Positions 5,582 to 11,802 of a stretch of 64,000 bases of DNA are shown piece after piece; position 1 is the stretch's first letter; each line of letters opens with the position of its first letter. Location: NCBI GenBank assembly GCA_944384995.1, contig CALWVN010000005.1:47176-111175 (forward strand), given 5' to 3'. Under the pieces are notes generated by a model. That model made no database searches and was not told where the DNA came from. It was given only the letters and a program-made list of their open reading frames with translations. The DNA is from an uncultured Clostridia bacterium. Its GTDB lineage: Bacteria > Bacillota > Clostridia > Oscillospirales > Acutalibacteraceae. The position numbers and the translations under genes were made by a program.

Positions 5582-8077
5582 ATGTTCAAATTTACGGGCT
5601 TTACGGAAAAAGCCAACCGCGCTTTAAACAAGGCGGTGCAGGCGGCGGAAAGCATGGGCCACACCTACATCGGCAGCGAGCATCTGCTTTTGGGGCTGCT
5701 GTCCGACAAGACCACAGTGGCGGGCGCAGTGCTCACCGCACGCCATATCCAATATGACAATATCGAAAATTATATCAAACAGGCGGTCGGCGTGGGCGTG
5801 CCCACCGAGCTTGTCCCCGACGATTTCACCCCGCGCAGCAAGCGCATCATCGAAACAGCGGTGCAGCTCGCGCGCGGCATGGGGCAGGCGCTTGTCGGCA
5901 CCGAGCACGTGCTGCTCGCCATCGTACGCGAACCGGACTGCATGGCGGCACAGATGCTCGCACAGTCGGGCGTGTCTTTGCAGGAGATCGTGAACGACGT
6001 CTCCAAAAGCGTCATGGGCGGCACGGCAGCACCTGCCAAAAACGGCGAGGAAGCGTCGGACGGCACGACCCTGTCACAGTTCGGCAGGGATCTGACGAAG
6101 CTTGCCAAAGAGGGGAAAATCGACCCCGTTATCGGCAGACAGAAAGAGATCGAGCGTGTTATCCAGATTCTGAGCCGCCGCACCAAGAACAACCCCTGCC
6201 TGATCGGTGAACCCGGCGTCGGCAAGACCGCTATCGCCGAGGGCTTGGCGCTTAAGATCGTGTCGGGCGAAGTCCCCGAAATGCTTAAAGACAAGCGGAT
6301 CATCTCGCTTGACCTGACCGGTATGGTCGCGGGTACAAAGTACCGCGGCGACTTTGAAGAACGCATCAAGAAAGTCATCGATGAAGTCAAAGCGGCAGAT
6401 GACATCATCCTGTTCATTGACGAGGTGCACACGCTTGTCGGTGCGGGCAGCGCAGAGGGTGCGGTGGATGCCGCGAATATCCTAAAGCCCTCGCTGGCAC
6501 GCGGCGAATTGCAGGTCATCGGCGCAACGACGCTCGAGGAATACCGCAAGAATATCGAAAAGGATGCCGCGCTGGAGCGCCGTTTCCAGCCCATCATCGT
6601 CGGCGAGCCGAGCGAAGAAGAGGCGGTCGAGATCCTCAAAGGCCTTCGCGATAAATACGAGGCGCACCACAAGGTGAAGATCACGGATGAGGCCATCAAC
6701 GCCGCAGTAAAGCTCTCTTCGCGCTACATCGGCGACCGGTACTTGCCGGATAAGGCGATCGACCTGATCGACGAAGCGGCATCGCGTGTAAAATTGCAAA
6801 CCTTTACAGCTCCGCCTGAGCTGAAAACGCTTGAAGAGCAGAAAAAAGAGATCGAAGCGGAAAAGCAGTCCGCCGTCAATGCGCAGGAATTCGAGCGCGC
6901 CGCCGAGCTTCGTGACCGTGAGAAGCAGATCGCCGCAGAACTCGCCGAAAAACAGGAGGCTTGGAAGAAGCAGACGGGCAAGAGCCGCGACGAGGTCGGC
7001 GAGGCCGAGGTCGCGCAGATCGTGGCGTCCTGGACGGGTATCCCCATGACCCAGCTGACCACCGAGGAAAGCGAACGGCTTTTGCATTTGGAGGAAGAGC
7101 TGCACCGCCGCATCATCGGGCAGGAGGAAGCCGTCAAGGCGGTCTCCCGTGCCATCCGCCGCGGTAGGGTGGGCTTAAAAGACCCGAAGAAGCCGATTGG
7201 CTCATTCATCTTCTTAGGCCCCACGGGCGTGGGCAAGACCGAGCTTTGCAAGGCGCTCGCCGCCGCGATGTTCGGCGACGAAAACGCCATGATCCGGCTC
7301 GACATGTCCGAGTATATGGAGAAGCACACCGTCTCGCGTCTGGTCGGTTCGCCGCCCGGCTATGTCGGGTACGAAGAAGGCGGCCAGCTGACGGAAAAGG
7401 TGCGCAGAAAGCCGTATTCGGTCGTCCTGTTCGACGAGATCGAAAAAGCGCACCCCGACGTGTTCAACATGCTGCTGCAAATTCTGGACGACGGCATTTT
7501 GACCGACGCCCAAGGTCGGCGCGTGGACTTCAAAAACTGCGTCATCATCATGACCTCCAACGTCGGCGCGCGGCTCATTACGGATAAGCAGACGGCGTTC
7601 GGCTTTGCCGACAGCAGCGAGGCGGGCGAACGCAACGACGAAAAGATCAAGGAAGCGGTCATGGGCGAGCTTCGCAATACGTTCCGCCCGGAATTCCTTA
7701 ACCGTGTGGACGACATCATCGTGTTCCACCGCTTGACGAAGCCCCAGATCAAGGAAATCGCCGCGCGCCTGCTTAGCAACCTGCAAAAGCGCATCGCCAC
7801 GATGGATATTCACGTCTCGTTTGCGGACGAAGCGATCGAAAAGATCGCGGACGCGGGCTTCGACGAGGTCTATGGGGCACGCCCCTTAAAGCGCGCCATC
7901 CAAAGCCGGATCGAGGATACGCTCTCCGAAGCGATGCTGCGCGGCGAAGTGAAAGCACAGCACAGCTATACCTGCCGCGTTGCGGGCGACGGCTTTGTGT
8001 TCGCGGAGGACGGCGCATCGCCCGAAACAACAGAATCGAATGAGGTCGTCGAGCTGTCCGAAAAAAATGAGGGATGA
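5582..8077 (+). CDS. clpC: ClpC, AAA+ unfoldase
   Basis: An 831-residue Hsp100 protein. Two Clp N-terminal repeats (residues 1-145), first ATPase with Walker A GEPGVGKT (~210) and [10 protein letters not shown], an M-domain with a UVR-like segment (~410-460), second ATPase with GPTGVGKTE (~540) and [15 protein letters not shown], then the D2-small domain. It unfolds substrates, including arginine-phosphorylated ones, for ClpP. Last gene of the CtsR operon. The C-terminal tail (~30 residues, acidic) is less conserved. Confidence 0.97.
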
Positions 8078-8081
8078 CCCC

Positions 8082-8109
8082 TTGACAAACCGGGGATTCT
8101 CCTTATAAT
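8082..8109 (+). promoter_or_regulatory. Near-perfect sigma-A promoter of the lysis cassette
   Basis: TTGACA (8082-8087), 16-nt spacer, TATAAT (8104-8109). Both hexamers are full consensus. It starts 4 nt after the clpC stop and is the strongest-looking promoter in the window, which suits one held off by a repressor. Confidence 0.88.
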
Positions 8110-8122
8110 AGAATATGCAAAG

Positions 8123-8136
8123 CGAACAAATGTTCG
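8123..8136. promoter_or_regulatory. LexA (SOS) box
   Basis: CGAAC-AAAT-GTTCG, a perfect palindrome matching the Gram-positive LexA operator CGAACN4GTTCG. It lies 14 nt after the -10 hexamer, over the expected early transcribed region, so LexA would block this promoter until DNA damage. Confidence 0.85.
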
Positions 8137-8146
8137 AAACAGAAAG

Positions 8147-8187
8147 CAACACCTTGCGCGTAATGCGTATAGGTGTTGTTTTCGTTT
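8147..8187 (+). terminator. Terminator-like hairpin in the cassette leader (possible attenuator or clpC terminator)
   Basis: CAACACCT (8147-8154) pairs with AGGTGTTG (8171-8178), with an inner TGCGC/GCGTA helix, followed by TTTTCGTTT. It sits about 30 nt after the predicted start site and 60 nt before the first gene. It could end clpC readthrough, attenuate the SOS transcript, or release a short RNA. Confidence 0.6.
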
Positions 8188-8237
8188 CGACCAAGGTAAA
8201 GGCTCTGATGTCCTTGCCTTCAAGAAAGGAGAATCCA

Positions 8238-8663
8238 ATGCCCATTTCTTATGTGACCGAACCTATGGTGCTCACCGAGGGCGAATACCTGTATTTGACC
8301 GAGGCGCTCGAACCGCTGACCGGCGAGCAGGTACACGACGGCGCTGTGGCACGCTTTGTGGTGCACAGCCGGCAAGAGGTGCTGCGCCAGATCGTGCAGT
8401 GCGTGCTCGAAGGGGAGCTGACCGATGAAGAGCGCATGGTGGCGAGGCTGCTGCTTATGGAGGGGGAAAGCGTGGTCGGCACGGCGCGCCGCTGCTCGCT
8501 TTCGCGCGGGCGGGTCTATACGCTTGCACAAGCGGCGGAAACGAAGCTGCGCATGTGCTTGAAGTACCCGTTTTTGTTAGACTTCAGCCTTGCCAAGCCT
8601 CAAAAGCCCATCGCGGAGCTTGTCAAACAATATGGAGGTGCCGTATGCAGCAAAATATCGTGA
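8238..8663 (+). CDS. Sigma-region-4-like helix-turn-helix protein, first gene of the SOS cassette
   Basis: A 141-residue protein. Residues ~75-120 (EERMVARLLLMEGESVVGTA followed by SRGRVYTLAQAAETKLR) have the spacing of a sigma-70 region 4 helix-turn-helix; the N-terminal part is not recognised and no clear region 2 is seen. It could be a small sigma-like activator of the downstream genes, comparable in logic to SOS-induced UviA-type sigma factors next to clostridial toxin or bacteriocin release genes, or a phage late-gene regulator. Start at 8238 follows AAAGGAGAA. Its 3' end overlaps the next gene by 19 nt. Function is inferred. Confidence 0.6.
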   Translation: MPISYVTEPMVLTEGEYLYLTEALEPLTGEQVHDGAVARFVVHSRQEVLRQIVQCVLEGELTDEERMVARLLLMEGESVVGTARRCSLSRGRVYTLAQAAETKLRMCLKYPFLLDFSLAKPQKPIAELVKQYGGAVCSKIS

Positions 8664-10273
8664 CCGTCGAAGTCCCCGCGTCGCTGCCCGAACCCGCGCA
8701 GGATATTACGGCGGGCAATATGTACGAGCACAACGCCACAGCGCTGGAATTTGTGCTCGATGAATTGCTTGTTTCGGCGGCTTACAAGTATTATCTTGAG
8801 TTTGTCACGCTCGGCGGCGTGTCGCGCACCGGATACCTTACGCCGGATGAGGCGGGAAAAATCCTGTTTCCCGTCCCGCAGGCGGTCACGGCGCAGATGA
8901 CCGCGCTGTGCGTGCTCAACATCGTGCAGGTGTCCGATGACGGCGTGACCGAGCAGCTTATAAAAGCGCAGACCGTGCGGCTGCATTTTTCGCCGCTCGA
9001 AAACACGGAAAAGCAGTTGTGCGCCGATTACGAATTTACGATCAACAGCCTGCTTGCCGCCATCGAGAACGACACGTTCAAGGGCGACAAGGGCGACAAG
9101 GGCGATGCCTATATCCTGACCGATGCGGACAAAACGGAGATTGCGTCTCATGTGGACGAGGCGTTTTACGGGCTGCCGCTGCAAAAACAGGCGGCGCTTG
9201 CCGGGTCGGGCGTTGTGACCGGTGCGGCGGGGAACGCCGAGGTGCACGGGCTGTCGGTGGTGCCGCGGGAAGCTTCTCTCGCCGGAGAGGCCTGCGCGAT
9301 GATCGCCGTCGGACACAACGAGATCGCCTGGCTGCTGGACAGCACGCAGCATACGCAGTTTGAGCAGACGACAGGTACTTACTGCCAGGCGACCTTGACG
9401 CTGGAGCCGAACACGGAATACGTGCTGCTCAAAGCGGATGCCAAACCATCTGCCGTGACCTATTCTTATCTGCAGGTCGGAAAGAGCAGCTATTGGTTCT
9501 GCCATAAGGAAATTGCGGCGCAGAACAAGGCGTATATGGAATTTACCACTTCGGAGGATGGGCTTTGTGTGTTGGTCTGTACCAACCTGTATATTTCCGC
9601 CGCCCTATACGAAACGGCCTTGAACAGCGACTGGAGAGGCCTCGGAATTTACAAAAAAGCGGACGTTCTGGCCCTGCAGCAAAGCTTTGACGACCCGCTT
9701 TATCGGCTGGACGCCGACTGTACGGATGCATTTGATTTTATCCGTGGGACGTGTACCCGCCGAACGGCCAAGCTGCGTCTGTCTGCGGATATGCTGACCG
9801 ACAGCCAGCCCCTCCAAAGAGGGTCCGCCGGTGAAGCGCCGGCGTATCGGTACACGTTTACGCCGCCGGCTTCTGCGCCGACCAAGCAGGAAGGATACGC
9901 CGGCGGGCTCTGCGCTTTGCTGCCGGTCATGGACGCCGATGTGACCGACGCCGAAGGGTATGCGCAGTACGTCGAGCAAACGGGACAGACTGGGGGCGTC
10001 TGGTTCGGCGGACACGGCATCGTCGTGCTGAGCACTACGCCGCCGGACGCGCTTGCCGCTTATCTTTCCGAAAACACGCTGGAGGTCCTGTATGCGGCGG
10101 TGAGCCGGACACAGACGTTGGCTGAACCGCGGGCATGTACGCTGCCTGTACAGGCGAGACAATATGTCGTTGCACCGGACACGGTCTGCGCGACGATGAA
10201 TTATCGAGCCGATCTTTCGGCGGTGGTGCAAGACTTGGAGTCAAGGCTCGCGGCTCTGGAGAATACACTGTAA
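8645..10273 (+). CDS. Phage fibre/baseplate-like structural protein
   Basis: A 542-residue protein starting at an ATG after TGGAGGTGCC. The N-terminal ~140 residues look like a BppU-type baseplate N-domain, followed by a short collagen-like GDKGDKGDA stretch (~residue 147), a beta-rich middle, and a C-terminus ending VVQDLESRLAALENTL, a coiled-coil end common in phage tail-tip proteins of gut Firmicutes. No secretion signal is visible. It is the only structural phage-like gene here: no tail tube, tape measure, capsid or terminase accompanies it. It may be a leftover fibre, or cargo set free when the cell lyses. Confidence 0.6.
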   Translation: MQQNIVTVEVPASLPEPAQDITAGNMYEHNATALEFVLDELLVSAAYKYYLEFVTLGGVSRTGYLTPDEAGKILFPVPQAVTAQMTALCVLNIVQVSDDGVTEQLIKAQTVRLHFSPLENTEKQLCADYEFTINSLLAAIENDTFKGDKGDKGDAYILTDADKTEIASHVDEAFYGLPLQKQAALAGSGVVTGAAGNAEVHGLSVVPREASLAGEACAMIAVGHNEIAWLLDSTQHTQFEQTTGTYCQATLTLEPNTEYVLLKADAKPSAVTYSYLQVGKSSYWFCHKEIAAQNKAYMEFTTSEDGLCVLVCTNLYISAALYETALNSDWRGLGIYKKADVLALQQSFDDPLYRLDADCTDAFDFIRGTCTRRTAKLRLSADMLTDSQPLQRGSAGEAPAYRYTFTPPASAPTKQEGYAGGLCALLPVMDADVTDAEGYAQYVEQTGQTGGVWFGGHGIVVLSTTPPDALAAYLSENTLEVLYAAVSRTQTLAEPRACTLPVQARQYVVAPDTVCATMNYRADLSAVVQDLESRLAALENTL

Positions 10274-10287
10274 CAGGAGGTTTTTCT

Positions 10288-11157
10288 ATGGAAATTTTAT
10301 TCAAAGGCATTGACGTGTCCAAATGGCAGGGCACGATTGATTGGAATAAAGTCAAAAATGCGGGCGTGCAGTTCGCCATGCTGCGCGCAGGCTACGGCCG
10401 CTACGAGGGCCAGGCCGACGAATATTTTGAAGAAAATTACAAAAACGCGACGGCCGCAGGACTGCCCGTCGGCGCTTACCACTTCAGCTATGCCAAAACC
10501 GTCGAACAGGCGAAAGCGGAGGCGGCGTACTGCAAAAAGCTGATCGCCGGCAAGACCTTTGCGTTCCCCATTGCCTACGACGTGGAAGACGACGGGCAGG
10601 CGTCGCTTTCCAAAGACCAGATCAGCGCCATCGTGGACGCCTTCTGCTCCGAAATGGAAGCGGCGGGATACTACGTCTGCGTGTATATGAACCTGTCGTG
10701 GCTCAACTCGAAGCTCACGGATGACATGTTCAAAAAGTACGACGTCTGGCTTGCGCATTGGACGAAAAGCACCAACTTTGCGCGCAGCTACGGGATGTGG
10801 CAGTACACCTCCGACGGCGCTGTGGACGGCATTACAGGCAGGGTAGACCTTGACTACGCCTACAAAAACTACCCGAACATCATGCGCGTCAACGGCCTCA
10901 ACGGGTTCAAAAAAGAAGGTGCGTCCGGCAGCGGCAGCGGCTTCACCGCGCGCATGATGGTCACGCTCGACAACACACCGCTGTATGTGTCCGCTACGGC
11001 GAAAACACCTGCGGCATATAAGTCGGGCACCTTCTACCTGTATGACGGCAAGGAAATGAGCGGCCGCTACCGCATCACCAATTCCCCCTCCCGCGCGGGC
11101 AAAACGCCGATCTCCGAAAACGTGACCGGCTATGTCAACAAAGCGGACTTGAGGTGA
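10288..11157 (+). CDS. GH25 lysozyme (endolysin-like)
   Basis: A 289-residue cell-wall hydrolase. Residues 1-~195 are a glycoside hydrolase 25 (muramidase) domain: KGIDVSKWQGTIDW at the start, AYHFSYA, YDVEDDG (catalytic acidic cluster) and WQYTSDGAVDGITGRVDLDY at the end. A Gly/Ser linker leads to a ~75-residue C-terminal domain that looks like an SH3-type wall binder. There is no signal peptide, so export would need the holin encoded two genes later. A perfect AGGAGG site precedes the ATG at 10288. Confidence 0.93.
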   Translation: MEILFKGIDVSKWQGTIDWNKVKNAGVQFAMLRAGYGRYEGQADEYFEENYKNATAAGLPVGAYHFSYAKTVEQAKAEAAYCKKLIAGKTFAFPIAYDVEDDGQASLSKDQISAIVDAFCSEMEAAGYYVCVYMNLSWLNSKLTDDMFKKYDVWLAHWTKSTNFARSYGMWQYTSDGAVDGITGRVDLDYAYKNYPNIMRVNGLNGFKKEGASGSGSGFTARMMVTLDNTPLYVSATAKTPAAYKSGTFYLYDGKEMSGRYRITNSPSRAGKTPISENVTGYVNKADLR

Positions 11158-11162
11158 TCGCT

Positions 11163-11429
11163 TTGGCGGAGCAGGACGTATATGCCCACAGGATCGCGAA
11201 GCTGGAGGAAGATGTCAAGCATCTGTATTCCAAAACGAACGGATTTGCGATCACAAGCGCCGAAATGAACACGAAGCTCGACAACGTGCTTGTCACGCTC
11301 GGGGAGCTCAAAGAGAGCATCAAAGCGGTGCGCGAGCGCCCGGCACGGCTTTGGGATAAGCTGATCCTCGCCGTGCTCGCGGCGGCGGGCACGGGCTTCG
11401 GTACGGCGCTCTGGATCGCGGTTCGCTGA
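11163..11429 (+). CDS. XhlA-like small coiled-coil membrane protein
   Basis: An 88-residue protein with an N-terminal alpha-helical coiled coil (KLEEDVKHLYSKTN ... ELKESIKAVRERP) and one C-terminal membrane helix (LILAVLAAAGTGFGTALWIAV). This is the plan of haemolysin XhlA/BhlA proteins, which act beside holins in phage lysis modules. The start is ambiguous: GTG at 11154 overlaps the lysozyme stop, but GAGGTGATC at 11151-11159 is an excellent anti-16S match placed correctly for the TTG at 11163, which is preferred here. Confidence 0.75.
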   Translation: MAEQDVYAHRIAKLEEDVKHLYSKTNGFAITSAEMNTKLDNVLVTLGELKESIKAVRERPARLWDKLILAVLAAAGTGFGTALWIAVR

Positions 11430-11442
11430 AAGGAGAGATAAA

Positions 11443-11754
11443 ATGGAGTTTCTGGATTTCATTATGGAGCACGCACTGATCCTGATTCCCGTGCTCAATA
11501 TACTCGGCCTGATTTTCAAAAAGACCGAAAAGATACCCGACAAATGGATCCCGCTCATCCTGCTTGTGTTCGGAATTGCGGGCGCGTTTGCGATCCTCGG
11601 TTTTTCCGCGGACGCGGCGGTGCAGGGCGTTCTCGTCACAGGCGTCGCCGTATACGGCGAACAGGTCGTCAAGCAACTCAAAAAGAGCTCAAAAAGCGGT
11701 GCGGCCGAAACGGCAGACCCTGCAAACGCAGCTGCCGAGCAAACCAAGCAATAG
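11443..11754 (+). CDS. Phage-type holin
   Basis: A 103-residue protein with two or three hydrophobic segments (ALILIPVLNILGLIF, WIPLILLVFGIAGAFAIL, and a weaker VQGVLVTGVAVYG) and a charged C-terminal tail. The form ...KTEKIPDKWIP... followed by the YGEQVVKQLKKSSKS tail matches small Firmicutes phage holins. It would form the membrane lesion that lets the signal-less lysozyme reach the wall. Last gene of the cassette, after AAAGGAGAG, followed by a strong terminator. Confidence 0.85.
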   Translation: MEFLDFIMEHALILIPVLNILGLIFKKTEKIPDKWIPLILLVFGIAGAFAILGFSADAAVQGVLVTGVAVYGEQVVKQLKKSSKSGAAETADPANAAAEQTKQ

Positions 11755-11764
11755 GATTCACCCG

Positions 11765-11802
11765 GCGCCCGGGAAGACCGCGGTCTTCCCGGGCGCGTTT
11801 TT
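11765..11802 (+). terminator. Intrinsic terminator of the SOS cassette
   Basis: Perfect 16-bp palindrome (GCGCCCGGGAAGACCG / CGGTCTTCCCGGGCGC, 11765-11796) followed by GTTTTT. It closes the cassette and separates it from the polysaccharide operon. Confidence 0.9.

What the first reader, a model, noticed from the sequence alone, without database searches (positions are those of the whole stretch)
8082..11802. SOS-controlled stand-alone lysis cassette with a sigma-like first gene
Seen: full-consensus promoter, perfect CGAACN4GTTCG LexA box after the -10, five tightly packed genes (sigma-region-4-like, fibre-like, GH25 lysozyme, XhlA-like, holin), strong terminator. No capsid, tail, terminase or integrase. 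Known: LexA boxes control SOS genes; UviA-type sigma factors with holin-like partners release clostridial bacteriocins or toxins after DNA damage. Inference: a domesticated altruistic-lysis or release system, placed next to a capsule operon. A remnant prophage would be expected to show decay, but all frames are intact.
Basis: partly seen in the sequence, partly recalled or inferred. Interest (0 to 1): 0.75.

Follow-up and report, generated by a model that had tools for sequence, protein, structure and literature searches.

The report
Genus-wide SOS-triggered self-lysis gene cassette
A small set of phage-derived genes that should burst the bacterial cell after DNA damage appears to have become a stable, inherited part of a whole genus of uncultured clostridia-like bacteria, and often carries a phage-fibre-like protein that would be set free when the cell bursts.

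Summary
In detail: perfect promoter (8082-8109), LexA-type box (8123-8136), five packed intact genes (8238-11754), terminator (11765-11796).

A prophage remnant is unlikely. The first gene is found, once each, in 38 of 39 genomes of the genus. All 38 loci carry the regulator, a GH25 lysozyme (frame cut short in one), an XhlA-type membrane protein and a holin; 28 also carry the fibre-like gene. Chromosomal sites differ but follow the RecA tree. A box with at most 1 mismatch precedes 31 of 38; in the window's genome the strict box occurs only here and at lexA. Of three particle families searched, none is conserved in the genus.

Most likely this is a domesticated, LexA-controlled lysis module that bursts damaged cells and releases cytoplasm plus, usually, the signal-less fibre. 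Its logic resembles type 10 secretion systems and UviA/UviB bacteriocin release; membership is not shown. Function is inferred; nothing was tested at the bench, and structure prediction could not be run.

The parts
8082..8109 (+). promoter, TTGACA-16-TATAAT
   Evidence: 12 of 12; a promoter pattern followed by the box 5-16 nt downstream in 28 of 38 loci
8123..8136 (+). LexA (SOS) box CGAACAAATGTTCG
   Evidence: <=1 mismatch in 31 of 38 loci; lexA 34 of 36 with <=2 and recA 37 of 37 with <=1; strict form only here and at lexA in this genome
8144..8181 (+). leader terminator-like hairpin followed by a U-rich run (putative attenuator) between the box and the first gene
   Evidence: -20.6 kcal/mol here; 38 of 38 loci at -9 or below vs 28 of 190 dinucleotide shuffles, lexA 4 of 34, recA 0 of 37
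8238..8663 (+). sigma-region-4-like regulator, 141 aa ('SIG')
   Evidence: TIGR02937 2.4e-4, below cut-off; profile of 38 members matches sigma factors and YlxM-type (UPF0122) proteins in the PDB; phage sigma family phrog_1740 in 29 of 38 members (the window member itself has none)
8645..10273 (+). phage-tail-fibre-type protein, 542 aa: conserved ~150-aa N-terminal domain, collagen-like linker, variable tip; no signal-peptide-like stretch ('FIB')
   Evidence: N-domain relative beside terminase, portal and head genes in another genus
10288..11157 (+). GH25 lysozyme-type endolysin, 289 aa; GIDVS and DxE motifs in 38 of 38 relatives
11154..11429 (+). XhlA-like coiled-coil protein with one membrane segment, 91 aa (GTG start)
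   Evidence: (phrog_937 4.2e-6)
11443..11754 (+). Hol44-type (superfamily V) holin, 103 aa
   Evidence: PF16079 1.1e-19; phrog_1129
11765..11796 (+). operon terminator

Best explanation
A domesticated, vertically inherited, LexA-controlled lysis module. Shown from sequence: a strong promoter with a LexA-type box just downstream, a terminator-like hairpin in the leader, and an operon of a sigma-4-like regulator, usually a phage-fibre-type protein, an endolysin, an XhlA-type membrane protein and a holin. Inferred: LexA blocks the promoter in healthy cells; the leader hairpin stops leaky and read-through transcripts (in the window only 4 bases lie between clpC and the promoter), so two locks guard lethal genes. 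After DNA damage RecA-driven LexA cleavage opens the promoter; the regulator then boosts transcription of its own operon, by activation or antitermination, giving an all-or-none switch in some cells. Holin and XhlA-type protein let the lysozyme reach the wall, the cell bursts, and cytoplasm (DNA, vesicles, proteins, the fibre where present) is released to the kin population. Lysis is the constant function; the fibre is a frequent cargo.
For:: regulator in 38 of 39 genus genomes, one match each (27 of 27 of the good ones); regulator + GH25 + one holin (36 Hol44, 2 phiLC3-type) + one XhlA-type protein (29 XHL, 9 c28) in 38 of 38; fibre in 28. Exchange of holin and XhlA types with the function kept points to selection for lysis; sites follow the RecA tree; distances correlate with RecA distances at 0.76 (regulator), 0.82 (GH25), 0.66 (holin), 0 of 2000 permutations as high; dN/dS of GH25 0.03-0.25, XHL 0.04-0.10, holin 0.03-0.17 in 9 of 10 pairs, regulator 0.06-0.28, fibre 0.14-0.44. 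SOS box at the cassette, lexA and recA; leader hairpin in 38 of 38. Dit in 1, capsid in 7, sheath in 2 of 39 genomes; no head, tail or packaging family among the displayed PHROG matches of the flanks; no relative of fibre or regulator found in viral contigs, while the GH25 query found viral contigs; the only phage-record hit is an unverified metagenome scaffold collinear with the chromosome stretch L053.
Against: No expression, lysis or release was measured. 7 of 38 loci lack the box, so SOS control is not universal. In L053 the GH25 frame ends at 146 aa; whether real or an assembly error is unknown (a closely related intact copy exists in L230). The regulator family and the fibre's N-domain also occur in phage-like loci (L128 by eye; L314 with terminase, portal and head), so phage origin is plain and a link in trans to some particle cannot be wholly excluded. 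One holin pair (L054-L056) gives dN/dS 1.92 on a dS of 0.02; many other dS values are near 1 or above, so ratios are rough. Antitermination by the regulator is a guess: Q-like matches are weak and few (4 of 38 members, best 9.5e-4). Outside the genus the leader hairpin is not general.
Confidence: 0.72

Rival explanations
1. A holin-dependent secretion module of type 10 kind whose main job is to export the fibre-type protein (adhesin or bacteriocin-like cargo); lysis is only the means, or export is not lytic.
For: In 28 of 38 loci the fibre gene sits between regulator and lysis genes; it has no signal-peptide-like stretch and a variable tip. Passages of PMC10847048 define T10SS as holin/endolysin/spanin clusters outside phages that release coupled cargo, and passages of PMC9527704 describe UviA-UviB-endolysin-bacteriocin sets.
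Against: 10 of 38 loci have no fibre gene in the cassette yet keep the whole lysis set.
Confidence: 0.15
2. Lysis-and-fibre locus of a dispersed gene transfer agent or tailocin whose particle genes lie elsewhere, as separate lysis and fibre loci serve some known GTAs (recalled).
For: A tail-fibre-type protein makes most sense with a particle; a relative of the N-domain lies in a prophage-like locus with head and portal genes.
Against: Dit in 1, HK97-type capsid in 7 (6 over the cut-off) and sheath in 2 of 39 genus genomes, none in the window's genome, against 38 of 39 for the cassette. Not exhaustive: portal, terminase, tape measure and unknown folds were not searched.
Confidence: 0.06
3. Remnant prophage kept by chance.
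For: The lysis genes, the fibre domain and the regulator type all have phage relatives; one GH25 copy of 38 has a broken frame.
Against: All 38 copies keep the lysis set, with low dN/dS in nearly all pairs, a conserved hairpin, a mostly conserved box, and descent along the RecA tree.
Confidence: 0.02
4. Anti-phage device: infection or prophage induction triggers SOS, early lysis aborts phage production, and the freed fibre occupies receptors on neighbouring kin.
For: SOS-type box, lysis set, receptor-binding-type fibre with a variable tip.
Against: No direct evidence; PADLOC was not searched; fibre absent in 10 of 38.
Confidence: 0.05

Closest known systems
Type 10 secretion system (Serratia ChiWXYZ, Yersinia entomophaga YenLC)
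   Same: Phage-type holin and endolysin outside a phage, host-controlled, co-expressed with a cytoplasmic cargo; lysis releases it (passages of PMC10847048).
   Different: The two named are Gram-negative and use spanins; the Yersinia one is described as SOS-insensitive. This one has no recognised spanin, has a LexA-type box and a leader hairpin, and its fibre cargo is missing in 10 of 38 species.
UviA/UviB/endolysin/Bcn5 bacteriocin sets of Clostridium perfringens
   Same: Sigma-type regulator, holin, endolysin and a leaderless cargo together (passages of PMC9527704).
   Different: UviB is a BhlA-family holin and the endolysin an amidase (same passages); UviA is placed in the TcdR subgroup of sigma factors (passage of PMC10467148). 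Here only a region-4-like part is recognised, the endolysin is GH25, the holin Hol44-type, and the system is a near-constant chromosomal trait of a genus.
SOS-induced explosive lysis by the pyocin endolysin Lys of Pseudomonas aeruginosa
   Same: RecA/SOS-driven endolysin from a cryptic prophage cluster lyses some cells and frees DNA and vesicles; lys was found in all complete genomes checked there (passages of PMC4834629).
   Different: There the gene lies in a tailocin cluster; here no tail genes were recognised beside it.
Late end of temperate Firmicutes phage genomes (fibre, XhlA, holin, endolysin, late regulator; order recalled)
   Same: Gene types; a fibre N-domain relative in a prophage-like locus.
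   Different: No head, tail or packaging genes recognised; near-fixed in the genus; SOS box (31 of 38) and leader hairpin (38 of 38) conserved.

Membership tests
Type 10 secretion system | holin plus peptidoglycan hydrolase cluster outside a prophage | tested here: met
Type 10 secretion system | spanins (Gram-negative form) | tested here: not met
   no spanin family matched among the five window genes; XhlA-type protein instead
Type 10 secretion system | release of a co-expressed cargo | not testable with these tools
   needs an isolate; fibre is the candidate cargo in 28 of 38
UviA/TcdR group sigma factors | membership of the TcdR-type sigma subgroup | tested here: inconclusive
   only general sigma-70 region-4 matches; no TcdR-specific model was listed
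LexA regulon | box of the genus's own lexA and recA type at the promoter, conserved | tested here: met
   31 of 38, missing in 7
LexA regulon | induction after DNA damage and LexA binding | not testable with these tools
   no expression data
Prophage | capsid, tail or packaging genes beside the lysis genes | tested here: not met
   PHROG scan of 73 distinct proteins from the 3 nearest genes on each side of 38 loci: none among the 25 of 73 families displayed; no capsid, Dit or sheath in the window's genome; integrase not profiled
Gene transfer agent or tailocin | conserved particle genes elsewhere in the genome | tested here: inconclusive
   three families searched in 39 genomes, rare; others not searched
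Phage baseplate/tail-fibre adaptor (BppU-like) | matching N-terminal fold | not tested
   structure prediction never started, machine busy at all 24 requests; sequence searches of Pfam and PDB gave no meaningful match

The most novel reading that the evidence does not exclude
A particle-free phage-fibre system: a double-locked (LexA plus leader terminator) suicide switch in which the regulator is a lambda-Q-like antiterminator of its own operon, and lysing cells release a receptor-binding fibre with a fast-changing tip that acts on neighbours by itself, as a decoy, adhesin or lectin-like bacteriocin, without any tail or capsid. SOS-boxed regulator-c6 loci, some with lysis genes, recur in other genera of the family, so this would be a general layer of social lysis in these bacteria.
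Probability: 0.15. Interest if true: 0.9.

Novelty: new variant of a known kind. Interest (0 to 1): 0.74.

Why it matters
If true, a whole genus of uncultured clostridia-like bacteria carries a near-fixed DNA-damage suicide-and-release switch that may be mistaken for phage in databases (MT835647.1 is filed as one). It would give a clear case for asking why lysis is kept by selection in single-celled bacteria, and what an orphan phage fibre does without a phage. DNA-damaging drugs would then lyse such bacteria by programme.

Tried and rejected
Whole-genome LexA search with CGAACN4GTTCG: not informative, backwards control higher. Viral scan with the regulator alignment: too diverged to seed; single-protein scans used instead and found nothing (fibre alignment); these seed only close relatives, so distant phage homologues could be missed. 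Order-wide search with c6: 25 of 394, strong (below 1e-15) only in the genus and one genome of g19; weaker hits are other regulator-c6 pairs or solitary c6 genes. Rfam on the leader: one chance match at 17.2 bits (riboswitch cut-off 65.9), rejected. BppU label: recalled, dropped because Pfam and PDB gave nothing and no fold could be predicted. PHROG tail-fibre matches of the fibre (up to 15 of 28 members for one family) are probably due to the collagen-like linker (judged from matched ranges of another protein). Remnant prophage: see rivals. First GH25 motif pattern was too narrow (19 of 38), widened to 38 of 38. For L057 the script picked a hairpin that is not the terminator-like one; the latter folds at -9.5, so the count stands.
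Full report
Observation. The regulator is 141 aa (8238-8663); the fibre-like gene overlaps it by 19 bases; gaps of 14 and 13 bases and one overlap of 4 bases separate the rest. clpC ends at 8077 and the -35 hexamer begins at 8082, so transcripts of the ctsR-mcsA-mcsB-clpC genes would run into the cassette unless stopped. Gene names of the flanks (rnf, ctsR, mcsA, mcsB, clpC, wbaP, rimP, nusA) are my reading of the sequences and come from no family call of the window genes.

Distribution. In 39 genomes of the genus (own included) the regulator is found in 38, one match each; 27 of 27 genomes that are at least 90% complete and at most 5% contaminated have it. With the same single sequence only 7 of 150 genomes drawn from the family matched, among them the own genome and one more of the genus; the other five were weak (3.2e-5 to 3.3e-4). 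I fetched 37 loci besides the window; the shortest contig is 4.6 kb. In all 38 the order is regulator, then optional c6 (15) and fibre (28), then the lysis genes. GH25 is present in 38 of 38 with GIDVS and DxE motifs, but in L053 its frame ends at 146 aa; a closely related intact copy exists in L230. Holin: 36 Hol44-type and 2 phiLC3-type (PF04531 9.2e-19 for the one scanned). XhlA-type protein: 29 of one form and 9 of another (c28; one member scanned matches phrog_1863 at 1.7e-13 and XhlA weakly).

Flanks. From the three nearest called genes on each side of the 38 loci (204 genes), 73 distinct clusters of 50 aa or more were scanned once each against PHROGs. 73 families matched; of the 25 displayed none is a head, tail or packaging family, one is a transposase, the named others are host-type functions such as glycosyltransferases, an ATP-dependent protease and ABC transporters. 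The 48 weaker families were not displayed.

Sites and descent. 11 loci lie downstream of clpC, 13 in the rimP-nusA-type neighbourhood, 3 at contig ends, 11 elsewhere; a wbaP-type capsule gene lies just downstream in 12. On a RecA tree of 37 genomes the sites are clade-consistent: all 11 clpC loci form one clade; 12 rimP-nusA loci, the 3 contig-end loci and the one genome without a hit (G175, 85% complete) form another (G156 and G177 have no recA in the assembly and are not on the tree). Distances of regulator, GH25 and holin correlate with RecA distances (0.76, 0.82, 0.66; 36, 36 and 34 genomes; 0 of 2000 permutations as high). So the cassette most likely descended vertically and moved a few times within chromosomes.

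Selection. dN/dS between close pairs (ten pairs tried, 5 to 10 usable per gene): GH25 0.03-0.25, XhlA-like 0.04-0.10, holin 0.03-0.17 apart from one pair with almost no synonymous change (1.92 at dS 0.02), regulator 0.06-0.28, fibre 0.14-0.44; clpC 0.03-0.07. Many dS values are near or above 1, so the ratios are rough. The fibre's N-terminal 150 aa are conserved while tips differ; two tips look like SGNH esterases and one like a phosphodiester glycosidase with a LamG part (recalled, no call).

SOS control. A CGAACN4GTTCG box with 0 mismatches lies upstream in 26 of 38 and with 1 in 5 (in single-base shuffles 0.05% and 0.7%). 7 have none: six fall in one RecA clade of seven, and the seventh (G156, not on the tree) has a cassette nearly identical to that of clade member G170. 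The remaining clade member, L070 (G171), has a 1-mismatch box inside the promoter spacer. As an independent check, 34 of 36 lexA genes have such a box with at most 2 mismatches and 37 of 37 recA genes with at most 1. The pattern CRAACAWWTGTTYG occurs in the window's genome only at the cassette and at lexA, and 0-3 times per genome in the genus (backwards control 0-1). LexA itself is found in 36 of 39 genomes.

Leader hairpin. Between the box (or promoter) and the regulator each of 38 leaders can form a hairpin of -9 kcal/mol or better followed by a U-rich run; dinucleotide-shuffled leaders do so in 28 of 190, lexA leaders in 4 of 34, recA leaders in 0 of 37 (L057 checked). The arms differ widely in sequence yet pair in 96% of outer positions, against 57% when arms are dealt anew among species (the hairpins were chosen as best-folding, so this figure leans towards pairing). 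It is present where the gene before it is divergent (for example L055, L058, L062), so it is not merely the neighbour's terminator. I read it as a second lock; what lets polymerase through is unknown. The regulator is the natural candidate, but the evidence is only position and weak Q-like matches (4 of 38).

Origin and wider family. The profile of the regulator matches nearly every genome of the family, mostly weakly, as a sigma-4 domain would (397 of 398). Of the 45 best listed matches outside the genus I fetched 40: 30 have c6 directly downstream, 14 have at least one downstream gene matching my GH25, XhlA, c28 or holin profiles, and 18 have an SOS box with at most 1 mismatch in the 220 bases upstream. 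Of 126 downstream proteins listed 86 were pooled for Pfam and PHROGs: GH25 (4), M15 (5), NlpC/P60 (4), Amidase_3 (3), Hol44 (6), SPP1-type (3) and LLH (1) holins, with 25 of 35 and 25 of 96 families displayed. At least six regulator-c6 pairs have no recognised lysis gene next to them (L117, L119, L122, L124, L135, L147), and one regulator (L128) sits in a phage-like stretch by eye, so the regulator family is not confined to lysis cassettes. In some genera a divergent XRE-S24 repressor stands beside the regulator (PF00717 1.8e-30 in L116; others by reading). The fibre N-domain was found in 30 of 398 family genomes at 1e-6 (five of them of the genus); in L314 it lies beside terminase, portal and major head genes. 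So the parts are phage-derived, but the cassette lives without a recognised phage.

Phage collections. Fibre N-domain and regulator each hit one record among 50,697 phage records, MT835647.1, an unverified faecal scaffold without annotation. Its first ten called genes are collinear with L053 and most of the rest read as bacterial (by blast to my loci and by eye, not profiled). Scans of viral contigs with fibre and regulator queries gave no relative, while the GH25 query found six viral contigs, 53% identical in the best long match. The seeds used reach close relatives only.

Function. Shown: anatomy, conservation, box and hairpin. Inferred: SOS-triggered lysis with release of cytoplasm and fibre. 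The 10 loci without a fibre keep the whole lysis set, so lysis is the constant part. Closest in working are type 10 secretion systems (passages of PMC10847048), UviA/UviB bacteriocin sets (passages of PMC9527704 and PMC10467148) and pyocin-endolysin lysis (passages of PMC4834629). I saw no paper on such a cassette in the listings; the library lacks most subscription journals and preprints, so absence is weak evidence.

Limits. All relatives in the genus are unnamed assemblies, many incomplete. Genes were called by my own simple caller. The host's name is unknown; a contig of the same genus is titled 'uncultured Eubacteriales bacterium'. Structure prediction could not be run.

Noticed in passing
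L246 (own genome), L303-L307, L309: Solitary c6-like small coiled-coil genes stand directly behind SOS boxes (CGAACAWWTGTTCG exactly in L303-L307, one base off in L309 and in the own genome); a possible unknown SOS gene family, related to the c6 gene of the cassette.
   Followed up: partly
L297, L298, L300, L301: A 56-aa ORF lies close to perfect SOS boxes in four species whose cassette lacks the box.
   Followed up: no
L230 (MT835647.1): Record filed as bacteriophage appears to be bacterial chromosome carrying this cassette.
   Followed up: partly
L054, L055, L056, L059, L062, L064, L068 upstream of the regulator: Loci without the SOS box share a (TT)GACAAGTAACA promoter start and keep the leader hairpin; their control is unknown.
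   Followed up: no
L116, L121, L132, L138, L139, L145, L146: Divergent XRE-S24-type repressor next to the regulator in other genera; some promoters carry an SOS-like box in the -35/-10 spacer.
   Followed up: partly
L117, L119, L122, L124, L135, L147: SOS-boxed regulator-c6 pairs without recognised adjacent lysis genes; target genes unknown (the box has 1 mismatch in L119 and 2 in L147).
   Followed up: no
L116:8886-9509: Regulator in another genus is 208 aa: sigma-4-like part plus a Cro/CI-type HTH at the C-terminus, not seen in the 141-aa window protein.
   Followed up: no
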